Shown: positions 55,948-59,640 of the stretch, in pieces | How the letters are laid out: each line of letters starts with the position of its first letter | How positions within the stretch are numbered: position 1 is the first letter of the stretch | Origin: Psychrobacter arenosus | GTDB taxonomy: Bacteria; Pseudomonadota; Gammaproteobacteria; Pseudomonadales; Moraxellaceae | Assembly: GCF_904848165.1 (NCBI RefSeq) | Contig: NZ_LR884459.1 | Coordinates: 1,054,001 to 1,118,000 of the forward strand | DNA: 64,000 nt | Direction: 5' to 3' | Program-made: the position numbers and the translations under genes | Notes under the pieces: model-generated | Databases searched by the model: none | Told to the model about the DNA's origin: nothing | Seen by the model: only the letters and a program-made list of their open reading frames with translations

Positions 55948-56227
55948 TGACGCTATATTTTCACTCATCAGCTTTTGGCGAACAATTACAGTATTTATCC
56001 TACATTTAGCGTAAACTATGCCTGTATTTTTGCCTGTGACCTATCTATAGTAATAGCTAATTACCGCATTTATTATTTTAGTCAGCAGCTTATTTGCTTA
56101 AGAGCAAACAGGCGCTAATATCGACCCCTTTTGCTACTGTGCCTTTAGAGAGACCCTATTTTTAACAAGTACAGTCAGTTATTCACATTGCGAAATGTGC
56201 CACCCACCGATTCAAGGAGTTATTCCC

Positions 56228-57361
56228 ATGAGTAAACCTACCCACCCTACCCGTAATCCCCGCAACCCTAAGCTGTCTACGCCGGATCCAGAAGCGGAAA
56301 ACTATAATTTAGATGGCGAAGCTACCGTAGCGACCAAAGTCAGCACGGCGGGTACCGAAAAATTGCAGAAAGCACTAGCGCGTATGGGCCTAGGTTCACG
56401 TCGTCAGATGGAAGAAGTCATCAAAGCCGGTCGTGTTTCTATTAATACCAATGCCGCTAGCATCGGTGATCGCGTCGCTCAAGGCGATGAAATCCGTGTC
56501 GATGGCCGCTTGATTAAATACAAATCTGAAAATGAAAAGCGTCGCCGTATTATTGCCTACTATAAGCCTGAAGGTGAAATCTGCTCGGCCAATGATCCAG
56601 AAGGTCGTCCGACTGTTTATGACCGTCTGCCTAAATTGACCCATGACCGTTGGGTTATGGTCGGCCGCCTCGATATTAACTCGACCGGCCTATTGCTATT
56701 CACTAACGACGGCGAGTTGGCGCACCGTTTGATGCACCCATCAAATCAAATCGAGCGCGAATACGCTGTGCGGGTATTGGGTGAAGTGACCCCGCAAATC
56801 GCCAGTAAACTGACTGCCGGCGTCGAGCTTGAAGATGGTCTAGCGAAATTTGATGATATCCAAGAAGCCGGTGGTAGTGGCGTCAACAAATGGTATAACG
56901 TCAAACTCAAAGAGGGCCGTAACCGTGAAGTTCGTCGTCTGTTTGAGTCGCAAGATCTAAAGGTCAGTCGCCTACTGCGTACTAAATATGGCAGCTTTAG
57001 CTTACCTAAAGAGCTGCGTACTGGTCGTTTCCTTGAGCTCGACAAACGCGATATCCATGATTTGACTGACTTGGTCAATCTGCGTCCGCGTCAAGGCACA
57101 GGCCTATACGGTATGGCCAAGCGTAAGCAAGAGCGTATTAAAGATAAGCCGTTGAAAGCGCGTCGTAGCCGTACGTCTGACCGTATTGAAAGTGGTAGCC
57201 CGGCGAGTAAAGGTCGTCCTGCTAGCTCAGGTGGTCCTGCCAGTAAAGGCCGCTCAGGTACTGCAGGTAGCCCCGCTAGCAAAGGCCGTTCTGAAGGTCG
57301 CAACCGTTCTGATCGTCCAAATGGTACTGATACTCGCGGAACTAAACGTGGTCGCTCGTAG
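56228..57361 (+). CDS. rluB: 23S rRNA pseudouridine synthase RluB
   Basis: Converts U2605 of 23S rRNA to pseudouridine. The 377-residue product has an S4 RNA-binding domain (45-95: L-Q-K-A-L-A-R-M-G-L-G-S-R-R), then the RsuA/RluB catalytic core with V-G-R-L-D-I-N-S-T-G-L-L-L-F-T-N-D-G (catalytic Asp) and K-L-K-E-G-R-N-R-E-V-R-R-L-F. After residue 300 there is a basic Gly/Ser/Ala/Arg-rich tail with four S-K-G-R units. I chose ATG 56228 (AAGGAG about 8 bases upstream), not the frame opening 33 bases earlier. Confidence 0.93.
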   Translation: MSKPTHPTRNPRNPKLSTPDPEAENYNLDGEATVATKVSTAGTEKLQKALARMGLGSRRQMEEVIKAGRVSINTNAASIGDRVAQGDEIRVDGRLIKYKSENEKRRRIIAYYKPEGEICSANDPEGRPTVYDRLPKLTHDRWVMVGRLDINSTGLLLFTNDGELAHRLMHPSNQIEREYAVRVLGEVTPQIASKLTAGVELEDGLAKFDDIQEAGGSGVNKWYNVKLKEGRNREVRRLFESQDLKVSRLLRTKYGSFSLPKELRTGRFLELDKRDIHDLTDLVNLRPRQGTGLYGMAKRKQERIKDKPLKARRSRTSDRIESGSPASKGRPASSGGPASKGRSGTAGSPASKGRSEGRNRSDRPNGTDTRGTKRGRS

Positions 57362-57400
57362 ACCTTTATAAAAAAGTACAGATTGTAAAAACAGCTCCAA

Positions 57401-57440
57401 AAAAACCCCTTGTATTAAGCAACTAGTACAAGGGGTTTTT
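57401..57440. terminator. Bidirectional terminator after rluB
   Basis: AAAAACCCCTTGTA pairs with TACAAGGGGTTTTT, a long perfect stem, with tails for both strands. It lies between rluB and the convergent three-gene cluster. Confidence 0.88.
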
Positions 57441-57485
57441 CGTGGGTATCGCTATAATGGTTTAGGCATGCCCATAGCTTAGTAA

Positions 57486-57526: not shown

Positions 57527-58114
57527 CTAGGATTTATCATCCAACTTTTGCAAATAACGCTGCATAATCAATAACTCCTGATAGCTACTGTCGCGACATT
57601 GCGCCAGTAAATTATCCAAACGCTGCTCGGTTGACGCTAATAACGCCGCTAATACGCCTAAATCTGAGCTAAGCGCCTCGGAATTAGTAGTAGACGTTGC
57701 TGTAGCGAATTTAGGTAGACTGGCCATACGCTGTTGATGCTGCGCTAGGATATGATAATGCTTAAGCATCTCTGGCAGACGCTCATTTAATAGTTTACGG
57801 AGGGTGAATTGCGCTTCACTGGTGGGCACGGTGTTACCCTGCTGGGCTAAATCCTCTAGCCATTGTTGATAAATATCTGCCTTGTGGTCGATACGAGATA
57901 ATTGCTCCAGCAGTTCTGCAGGAAGATACGTCAGCACTGCATCATCTAACGTTAATTGCATGAGATTGGGCAACGCTAGCGGCTCGGATGGCGGCGTATA
58001 AGTTAGAGTACCCGGAGTAATACCGACGGCACGGTGGAAAGCATACCACCCTTTGCGGCCAATATAAGCTATGCCTAAGGTAGATACTAGCGCTACGCCA
58101 ATTAATAAACTCAT
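57527..58114 (-). CDS. Membrane-anchored protein of a three-paralogue cluster (member A)
   Basis: A 195-residue protein with one N-terminal membrane segment (2-20). A helical C-terminal domain (about 70-190) includes F-T-L-R-K-L-L-N-E-R-L-P-E-M-L-K-H-Y near 104-120, then L-A-S-T-E-Q-R-L-D-N-L-L and M-Q-R-Y-L-Q-K-L near the end. The same pattern recurs in the two genes upstream. The arrangement (I/L-x-x-L-L/I-x-x-x-L/I-P-x-x-L-x-x-Y, then a helix ending L-D-x-L-L) resembles the XpaC-type domain found beside TelA toxic-anion genes, but this is only motif-level. It is last gene of the cluster. Function unknown. Confidence 0.65.
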   Translation of the reverse strand: MSLLIGVALVSTLGIAYIGRKGWYAFHRAVGITPGTLTYTPPSEPLALPNLMQLTLDDAVLTYLPAELLEQLSRIDHKADIYQQWLEDLAQQGNTVPTSEAQFTLRKLLNERLPEMLKHYHILAQHQQRMASLPKFATATSTTNSEALSSDLGVLAALLASTEQRLDNLLAQCRDSSYQELLIMQRYLQKLDDKS

Positions 58115-58235
58115 AAGCCTTTGTGCCTGAATGGCCCCTTTGCGAATGGTTAGCCGCTTATAGCTAATAATTACAGCCTAATACTTCATCATGATAATAA
58201 AAATTCCTACTAAAACCTGCTGCCAAAAACTAAGG

Positions 58236-58784
58236 CTATAGCGCCTCATCTTCAAAACGTTGCTTTAAGTAGCGATTGGCTACCAATAGCTTTTGACCGT
58301 CTTTATGGTAGGAGGCATTCAGTAACTCGTCAAATTGCGCGTTGACCGTATTTAAAACTTCCAACAACGCTTCTTTACCGGTGACATTTGAGTTTTGAAT
58401 CTTGGTGGTGTCGGTACGGTCGCCATCTAAATCATGCAAACGGCGATAATCTTTAATCGCTTGCGGCACGTGTTTGTCCATCAAGTTTTTAATCATCACA
58501 TAGGTTTCAGTGACCGTATCTTTATCATCAATGACGCCATCATTATTGGTATCGCCATAAATTAGCCGCAGCTTTTCACCCTTTTCATTGATCTGCGATA
58601 AGGTCAGTTTGATATCTTGCGGCAAGCTTTTTTCAGGGATATAGCCCAATTGCGGCATGGCTTTATACTCAAGCATCTTAGGCTGAGTCAGTTTTTTGAC
58701 GCCGCGGTAGCCCAAATAGAGCCCAGCAGCAGGCAGCGCGCCGTATAAGACAAACATCAAAAACATGGCGGTTAACTGGGTCAT
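58236..58784 (-). CDS. Membrane-anchored protein with EF-hand loop, three-paralogue cluster (member B)
   Basis: A 182-residue protein with one N-terminal membrane segment (5-25). Residues 78-89 read D-T-N-N-D-G-V-I-D-D-K-D, a complete EF-hand calcium loop (ligands at 1, 3, 5, 9, 12 as D, N, D, D, D), directly before the shared domain: I-K-N-L-M-D-K-H-V-P-Q-A-I-K-D-Y (98-113), and F-D-E-L-L ... N-R-Y-L-K-Q-R-F near the end. A second acidic D-L-D-G-D-R-T-D follows (118-125). AGGA lies 8 bases before the ATG. It is middle gene, 82 bases after member C. Function unknown. Confidence 0.65.
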   Translation of the reverse strand: MTQLTAMFLMFVLYGALPAAGLYLGYRGVKKLTQPKMLEYKAMPQLGYIPEKSLPQDIKLTLSQINEKGEKLRLIYGDTNNDGVIDDKDTVTETYVMIKNLMDKHVPQAIKDYRRLHDLDGDRTDTTKIQNSNVTGKEALLEVLNTVNAQFDELLNASYHKDGQKLLVANRYLKQRFEDEAL

Positions 58785-58866
58785 AGTCCAAATCCTAACT
58801 GTACAATTTTAAAATTTAACGCCTTAAATTTAGCAGCGTTATGCCTGTATTTTTGTATTTATTGGT

Positions 58867-59640
58867 TTAGCTTTTAGTGCGGCTTTTTACATAACGATGC
58901 GTTGAGGCCAAGCGATTGAGGACAGTATTATGCAACTCGTCCAATAGCTCATCGAGCTCGTAATCAATCTCTAAGAATAAATCCGTCAACATATCCCCTG
59001 CCGTCATTTTACCCTGAACGGTATTATTGCGGGTACGATGCGGGCTAAAGCGCAGCAGCTGCTCATAATGATTGAGAGCTTCAGGAATGCTCTCATTGAT
59101 CAGCTTATCAATCACAAACTGACGCTCGCAAATCCACTCTTCTTGCTCGCCATGCAGCTCACTAGACCACTCCCGATAGCGGCCCAATTTTTGATTAATA
59201 CGATCTAAAATAGCGACCGCCTCAATAGGCATGGCGTTGAGCGTACGTTCATCGACGACGTGGATAAGTTCAGTCATGATAGGGCAGCGTCCGTGTTTTA
59301 AGGTCCATAAAGTAGCAGGATCAAAAGGGGGGCGATTGGGAGAGCGATAGTGCTTTCTGTTTTCTAAATAGCGGTCGGTCAAGGGCGTGGGCGATAGATG
59401 GTTATTCACCTGTGCGACGGCGGCTGATACCCGCTCTGCTCTTGAGCGCTGATTGTCACGCTCGGTAGGGTCTGCACGCTCTTGCGCAGGCGTTGTTGCT
59501 GGTTGGGCCGCTTGTTGCTGCTGCGCCGCGACTGAACCGGGATAAGTCAATGGGGGTAGCGTCGCTCCATTTAGCAGAGCCTCGACATCACGAGATGCCG
59601 GCTCGGTCAACGATTTAAACATTCTGGCTAGACTGACCAC
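58867..59640 (-). CDS. Soluble protein of a three-paralogue cluster (member C)
   Basis: A 257-residue protein without an obvious membrane segment. It has a Gln/Ala/Arg-rich first part (35-75), then the shared helical domain: V-A-I-L-D-R-I-N-Q-K-L, F-V-I-D-K-L-I-N-E-S-I-P-E-A-L-N-H-Y-E-Q-L (about 173-193), and I-D-Y-E-L-D-E-L-L-D-E-L with S-T-H-R-Y-V-K-S at the end. Start GTG 59640 has AAGGTGAG with 5-base spacing; ATG 59622 is the alternative. It is first gene of the presumed operon C-B-A. Function unknown. Confidence 0.65.
   Translation of the reverse strand: MVSLARMFKSLTEPASRDVEALLNGATLPPLTYPGSVAAQQQQAAQPATTPAQERADPTERDNQRSRAERVSAAVAQVNNHLSPTPLTDRYLENRKHYRSPNRPPFDPATLWTLKHGRCPIMTELIHVVDERTLNAMPIEAVAILDRINQKLGRYREWSSELHGEQEEWICERQFVIDKLINESIPEALNHYEQLLRFSPHRTRNNTVQGKMTAGDMLTDLFLEIDYELDELLDELHNTVLNRLASTHRYVKSRTKS

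What the first reader, a model, noticed from the sequence alone, without database searches (positions are those of the whole stretch)
57527..59640. Three-gene cluster of mutually similar unknown proteins, one with an EF-hand loop
The three minus-strand genes at 57527-58114, 58236-58784 and 58867-59640 each end with the same helical pattern. It runs: a helix with K-L-L/I/M-x-x-x-L/I/V-P-x-x-L/I-x-x-Y, a loop, a helix ending L/F-D-x-L-L, then R-Y-L/V-K/Q near the C-terminus. The paralogues differ elsewhere: two have an N-terminal membrane anchor, one is soluble with a Gln-rich start, and the middle one has a complete EF-hand loop (residues 78-89) just before the shared domain. The layout recalls XpaC-type proteins linked to TelA and Ter stress systems. 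A calcium-dependent, membrane-linked trio of this kind is not one I can name.
Basis: partly seen in the sequence, partly recalled or inferred. Interest (0 to 1): 0.75.

Follow-up and report, generated by a model that had tools for sequence, protein, structure and literature searches.

The report
Calcium-loop protein in a paralogous trio
Psychrobacter bacteria carry three neighbouring genes that descend from one ancestor and make small, mostly membrane-anchored helical proteins; one of them has gained a conserved calcium-binding-type loop, and together they may be a distant stand-in for a known but poorly understood envelope-stress protein.

Summary
Genes A (57527-58114), B (58236-58784) and C (58867-59640) are true paralogues: profile-profile probability 97.6-99.0% for each pair. 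The shared part is one ~125-residue helical domain. Homologues occur in 40 of 41 sampled genomes of the genus and 6 of 6 of a sister genus. Order C-B-A is kept in 28 of 34 examined genus loci; the other 6 have B-A without C. B's loop GDxNNDGxIxDxD is in 35 of 36 B proteins and in no A or C; loop positions 1, 3, 5 and 12 are invariant while their codons vary. A and B are predicted anchored with the domain in the cytoplasm; genus C lacks an anchor that its 6 sister-genus relatives have. XpaC is not met as Pfam membership; its C-terminal domain outscores 152 of 152 decoy windows, but at only 3-7% HHalign probability. A standalone TelA lies about 1 Mb away. Best reading: a derived XpaC-like partner set for TelA in envelope stress, with one ion-responsive member. 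Kinship, partnership and calcium binding are inferences.

The parts
57527..58114 (-). Gene A, 195 aa: N-terminal membrane anchor (residues 1-19), juxtamembrane motif WYAFHRAVGITPG, then the shared helical domain (about residues 55-193)
58236..58784 (-). Gene B, 182 aa: N-terminal membrane anchor (about residues 4-22), then the shared helical domain (about residues 53-178) with the calcium-type loop
58518..58553 (-). Codons of the EF-hand/dockerin-type loop DTNNDGVIDDKD (B residues 78-89)
58867..59640 (-). Gene C, 257 aa: no membrane anchor; variable Gln-rich start, a conserved RPPFD...CPIMTEL segment (pattern in 27 of 35 C rows), then the shared helical domain (about residues 128-256)
57393..57450 (-). 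Strong hairpin with a T run after gene A, likely terminator shared with the converging rluB (56195-57361, +)
   Evidence: -24 kcal/mol, z -5.2, 0 of 200 shuffles as good; the pattern scan did not list it

Best explanation
Genes C-B-A arose by tandem duplication of one single-pass membrane protein whose cytoplasmic part is a helical bundle. A and B still hang the bundle from the inner membrane; C has lost its anchor and probably joins from the cytoplasm. B has gained a calcium-type loop in the turn between helices 1 and 2, so binding of calcium (or another divalent ion) would change how the bundle packs. The set most likely does for the standalone TelA of these bacteria what XpaC does for TelA elsewhere: a membrane platform in the response to envelope or toxic-ion stress, with B as the ion-responsive member. 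Shown: paralogy, conservation, locus, loop sequence. Predicted: anchor and topology. Inferred: kinship to XpaC, partnership with TelA, ion sensing.
For: Paralogy. Tandem C-B-A locus in 28 of 34 genus loci. Hydrophobic N-terminal stretch in 33 of 35 A and 36 of 36 B; more positive charges after it than before it in 32 of those 33 A and 36 of 36 B, so the domain should face the cytoplasm. All 6 sister-genus C-like proteins have an anchor plus the motif W..[FLM]H...G[ILM]..G (6 of 6; also 35 of 35 A, 0 of 29 genus C, 0 of 36 B), so A and C probably share an anchored ancestor. Loop: positions 1, 3, 4, 5, 6, 8, 10, 12 invariant in 35 of 35 unique genus B, changes only at 2, 7, 9, 11, with synonymous codon changes at each invariant position. 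XpaC: its C-terminal domain scores 22.6 (19.5 on the filtered alignment) against our domain, above 152 of 152 decoy windows (best 17.4), its reverse (13.0) and 60 column shuffles (best 16.3); the sister-genus B aligns along most of it. TelA: in 45 of 46 genomes with the domain against 31 of 103 without. In genus g9 only 1 of 4 genomes has a remote homologue, about 1.8 kb from a TelA 45% identical to that of Psychrobacter, and by eye the g9 protein starts with two hydrophobic stretches. XpaC loci carry a TelA-like gene within 3 kb in 61 of 80. Passages read: xpaC-yaaN is core sigma-W in B. subtilis (PMC3498285); an XpaC-like gene and telA1 stand together in a transcriptome table of a Lactococcus paper on the CesSR envelope system (PMC3139573); the Listeria XpaC/TelA operon is discussed under bacteriocin stress (PMC12791056).
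Against: HHalign probability to XpaC is 0.1-3.3% for full-length trio profiles and 2.9-6.9% for the C-terminal domain; the larger XpaC alignment lowered it. The decoys are of unequal depth and not all helical, so that control is soft. Single-sequence XpaC hits are weak (best 11.3 bits, reversed control 6.9) and the top one is in a shifted register. The g9 link is mostly to C: combined profile 69%, C 56%, A 0.8%, B 2.5%, and a database search with the g9 protein at E up to 1 returned 6 relatives and no trio member. TelA is about 1 Mb from the trio in this genome, between infC and rnr. G043 has TelA and no trio; G108 has the trio and no TelA found. Shared ancestry alone could give most of the co-occurrence. 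The AlphaFold model of B is poor (mean pLDDT 53.5). The loop has D, not E, at position 12, no partner EF-hand, and is missing from the one sister-genus B.
Confidence: 0.4

Rival explanations
1. The trio is a Moraxellaceae-specific membrane scaffold unrelated to XpaC and TelA: three paralogous bundles form a hetero-oligomer at the inner membrane, and the loop in B is a structural calcium clamp that stiffens the helix turn.
For: No named family passes its cut-off; order sample 6 of 244 genomes (all in the genus) and class sample 2 of 274 (own genome and one marginal hit), so the family is narrow; XpaC kinship stays below 7% HHalign probability; TelA is not linked in Psychrobacter. The sister-genus B lacks the loop and keeps the domain.
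Against: XpaC outranks 152 of 152 decoy windows; the remote g9 homologue lies near a TelA of the Psychrobacter type.
Confidence: 0.35
2. The set is a cation-handling or osmotic regulator: the loop of B senses cytoplasmic divalent ions and gates an unknown membrane partner.
For: Loop invariance and predicted cytoplasmic side, where calcium is normally low and can signal (general knowledge); 17 of 52 domain members touch the coiled coil of osmosensory transporters (PF08946) at weak E-values, best 3.2e-5.
Against: Coiled-coil matches are nonspecific; no transporter lies inside the cluster (lysE- and marC-type genes are only neighbours); A and C have no ion loop.
Confidence: 0.15
3. On the loop alone (compatible with any of the above): it is not a calcium site but a conserved acidic turn, for instance a protein-contact surface.
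For: Single loop without a paired EF-hand; D at position 12; no Pfam EF-hand match at E up to 5.
Against: D1, N3, D5, G6, I8 and D12 never change in 35 of 35, while 2, 7, 9 and 11 do; D at position 12 is usual in dockerin-type loops (recalled).
Confidence: 0.15

Closest known systems
XpaC (PF10112, Halogen_Hydrol), partner of TelA
   Same: N-terminal membrane part followed by a helical domain with a similar pattern in its last helices (weak signal); TelA present in nearly all sampled genomes that have the trio
   Different: One membrane helix or none instead of several; three paralogues; no match at the Pfam cut-off; not beside telA in Psychrobacter; ion loop in B
EF-hand / dockerin-type calcium loop
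   Same: D-x-N-x-D-G-x-I-x-x-x-D between two helices
   Different: Single loop, D at position 12, set in an unrelated helical domain; no Pfam EF-hand match
TelA operon of genus g15 (about 258 aa - TelA - 304 aa)
   Same: A membrane protein is encoded beside TelA
   Different: Its neighbours do not match the trio profile; the two tested (L111) match no Pfam family above cut-off

Membership tests
XpaC / PF10112 | Match to PF10112 above the curated cut-off (29.8 bits) | tested here: not met
   0 in own genome; A, B, C no match; 1 of 52 members at E 0.0084
XpaC / PF10112 | Homologous C-terminal helical domain | tested here: inconclusive
   HHalign 2.9-6.9%, but above 152 of 152 decoy windows; collinear alignment of one B; full-length trio profiles 0.1-3.3%
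XpaC / PF10112 | Several N-terminal membrane helices (four helices precede the C-terminal part in the XpaC model; that they are membrane helices is inferred) | tested here: not met
   One hydrophobic stretch in A and B, none in genus C apart from one marginal row; XpaC model
XpaC / PF10112 | Gene beside telA | tested here: not met
   61 of 80 XpaC loci have a TelA-like gene within 3 kb; Psychrobacter TelA sits between infC and rnr. The remote g9 homologue is about 1.8 kb from TelA
EF-hand calcium-binding protein | 12-residue loop with side-chain ligands at 1, 3, 5, 9, 12 | tested here: met
   Positions 1, 3, 5, 12 invariant, 9 is D in 34 and N in 1, of 35 unique genus B
EF-hand calcium-binding protein | Match to a Pfam EF-hand or dockerin model | tested here: not met
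   None at E up to 5
EF-hand calcium-binding protein | Measured calcium binding | not testable with these tools
   Needs purified B
Ter stress system | ter genes (TerB, TerC, TerD) present and linked | not tested
   No search for ter families was run

The most novel reading that the evidence does not exclude
The trio is a split, calcium-switched form of the XpaC/TelA envelope-stress machine: one ancestral anchored bundle duplicated into two membrane subunits and one soluble subunit, and a calcium loop was inserted into the middle one, giving TelA an ion-responsive platform seen so far only in Psychrobacter.
Probability: 0.25. Interest if true: 0.7.

Novelty: new variant of a known kind. Interest (0 to 1): 0.45.

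Why it matters
XpaC and TelA are envelope-stress genes whose biochemical role is, to my knowledge, unknown. A genus in which TelA stands without XpaC but with three possible distant look-alikes, one carrying a ready-made ion switch, gives a concrete handle: change one loop and read out stress tolerance. It also points to a protein family that no Pfam or NCBIfam model recognises in the copies searched here.

Full report
What is there. Three minus-strand ORFs, here A (57527-58114, 195 aa), B (58236-58784, 182 aa) and C (58867-59640, 257 aa), lie between a converging rluB and a diverging lysE-type gene (these two names are my reading of the proteins). Names given by sources to relatives of B place them in Psychrobacter. 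A strong hairpin with a T run follows A. The gaps between the genes are 82 and 121 bases, so one transcript from C to A is likely but not shown.

Paralogy. Profile-profile comparison gives 97.6-99.0% for all three pairs (35 A, 36 B and 35 C rows, sister-genus proteins included). In the own genome the C query finds A and B, and the A and B queries each find C; A and B do not find each other there. The shared part is about 125 residues, with conserved L, I and K in helix 1, E, P and Y around helix 2, and L, D, L and Y in the last part.

Distribution. Of 149 genomes of the family, 46 have a match with the B query, 43 with A and 46 with C. For B, 40 are in the genus (40 of 41; G043 is the exception) and 6 in genus g7, which has 6 genomes held. 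With the domain profile, an order-wide sample gave 6 of 244, all in the genus, and a class-wide sample 2 of 274: the own genome and one marginal hit at E 7.8e-4. I fetched the loci of 34 of the 40 genus genomes with a match: 28 have C, B and A in this order, 6 have B and A without C. In one search, 6 of the 40 likewise lack a strong C match. rluB is not next to A in L066, and lysE is missing in L057.

Anchors and history. B has a hydrophobic N-terminal stretch in 36 of 36 proteins and A in 33 of 35, followed by positive charges, which predicts a cytoplasmic domain. Of 29 genus C proteins one (L066) just reaches the threshold; all 6 sister-genus C-like proteins pass clearly. Those 6 also have the motif W..[FLM]H...G[ILM]..G found in 35 of 35 A and in 0 of 29 genus C and 0 of 36 B. 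The simplest history is an anchored ancestor, duplication, and loss of the anchor in C. One g7 genome (G050) also has a 341-aa relative beside rluB.

The loop. B carries GDTNNDGVIDDKD in the turn between helices 1 and 2. Of 36 B proteins 35 have the pattern; the exception is the only sister-genus B in the set (L047). In 35 unique genus proteins, loop positions 1, 3, 4, 5, 6, 8, 10 and 12 never vary; 2 is T or S, 9 is D or N, 7 and 11 are free. Codons at the invariant positions do vary, so the protein sequence is what is kept. This is the signature of a calcium-type loop; binding itself was not tested.

Selection. B is the most conserved: best matches in other genus genomes are 69-92% identical to the window's B against 38-60% for A. 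dN/dS is 0.03-0.28 in the 14 of 23 pairs where dS could be computed; the others are saturated.

XpaC. No trio member reaches PF10112. I collected proteobacterial XpaC proteins (97 hits) and one Bacillota XpaC. Full-length profile comparisons gave 0.1-3.3% for the trio profiles, 5.6% and 0.3% for the g9 protein alone and its family. The C-terminal 135 residues gave 6.9% (2.9% on the filtered alignment), scores 22.6 and 19.5, against 13.0 for the reversed profile, at most 16.3 for 60 column-shuffled ones and at most 17.4 for 152 windows (76 and their reverses) of other protein families from these loci. Those families differ in depth and fold, so the control is soft. Of 263 sequences scanned the twelve best printed reach 6.5-11.3 bits; reversed, the best is 6.9. 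The sister-genus B aligns over most of the XpaC domain, several A proteins over the last helix in one register, the top-scoring A in a different register. I take this as a lead, not as proof.

TelA. The genome has one TelA, between infC and rnr, with no XpaC in the genome. In 149 family genomes TelA occurs in 76 (74 over cut-off): 45 of the 46 with the domain and 31 of the 103 without. Kinship among genomes explains part of this. More telling is genus g9: of 4 genomes only G024 has a remote homologue of the domain (hhalign 69% to the combined profile, 56% to C, 0.8% to A, 2.5% to B), and it lies about 1.8 kb from a TelA 45% identical to that of Psychrobacter. G044 has a more divergent TelA and no domain; G009 and G035 have no TelA match. 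This is one case.

Literature. Passages read: xpaC-yaaN is listed as core sigma-W regulon in B. subtilis (PMC3498285); an XpaC-like protein and TelA1 are listed together, with ratios 10.3 and 3.44, in a transcriptome table of a paper on membrane-protein overproduction and the CesSR system in L. lactis (PMC3139573); in Listeria the putative XpaC/TelA operon is discussed with bacteriocin stress, and a mutant of the telA gene is reported as more susceptible to nisin and tellurite (PMC12791056 citing Collins 2010). Collins 2010 itself was not held.

Verdict. The finding is real: a narrow, unnamed protein family with a well-supported calcium-type loop in one member. The link to XpaC and TelA is the best functional lead and is testable, but unproven.

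Noticed in passing
L233:988-2013 (G050): A 341-aa membrane-anchored relative of the domain sits beside rluB in one g7 genome, on a very long branch of the tree.
   Followed up: partly
L111:5744-8598, similar order in L112-L114 and L120: In genus g15, TelA is encoded between a protein of about 258-307 aa and a membrane protein of about 303-315 aa; the two tested (L111) match no Pfam family above its cut-off.
   Followed up: partly
L115:8206-10632: Three minus-strand genes beside TelA in G024; the 242-aa one is a remote relative of the trio domain with an N-terminal hydrophobic region, the other two are unnamed and look membrane-anchored by eye.
   Followed up: partly
L059:8319-9386: A 355-aa ORF lies between A and B in G083, the only large interruption of the cluster noticed.
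   Followed up: no
L053-L058: Six genus genomes lack C; in four of them (L053-L056) B has an extra stretch with NKTVVISAEKS.
   Followed up: no
L116, L117, L118: Sampled genomes of genera g5 and g12 with TelA have two or three TelA matches, some close together.
   Followed up: no
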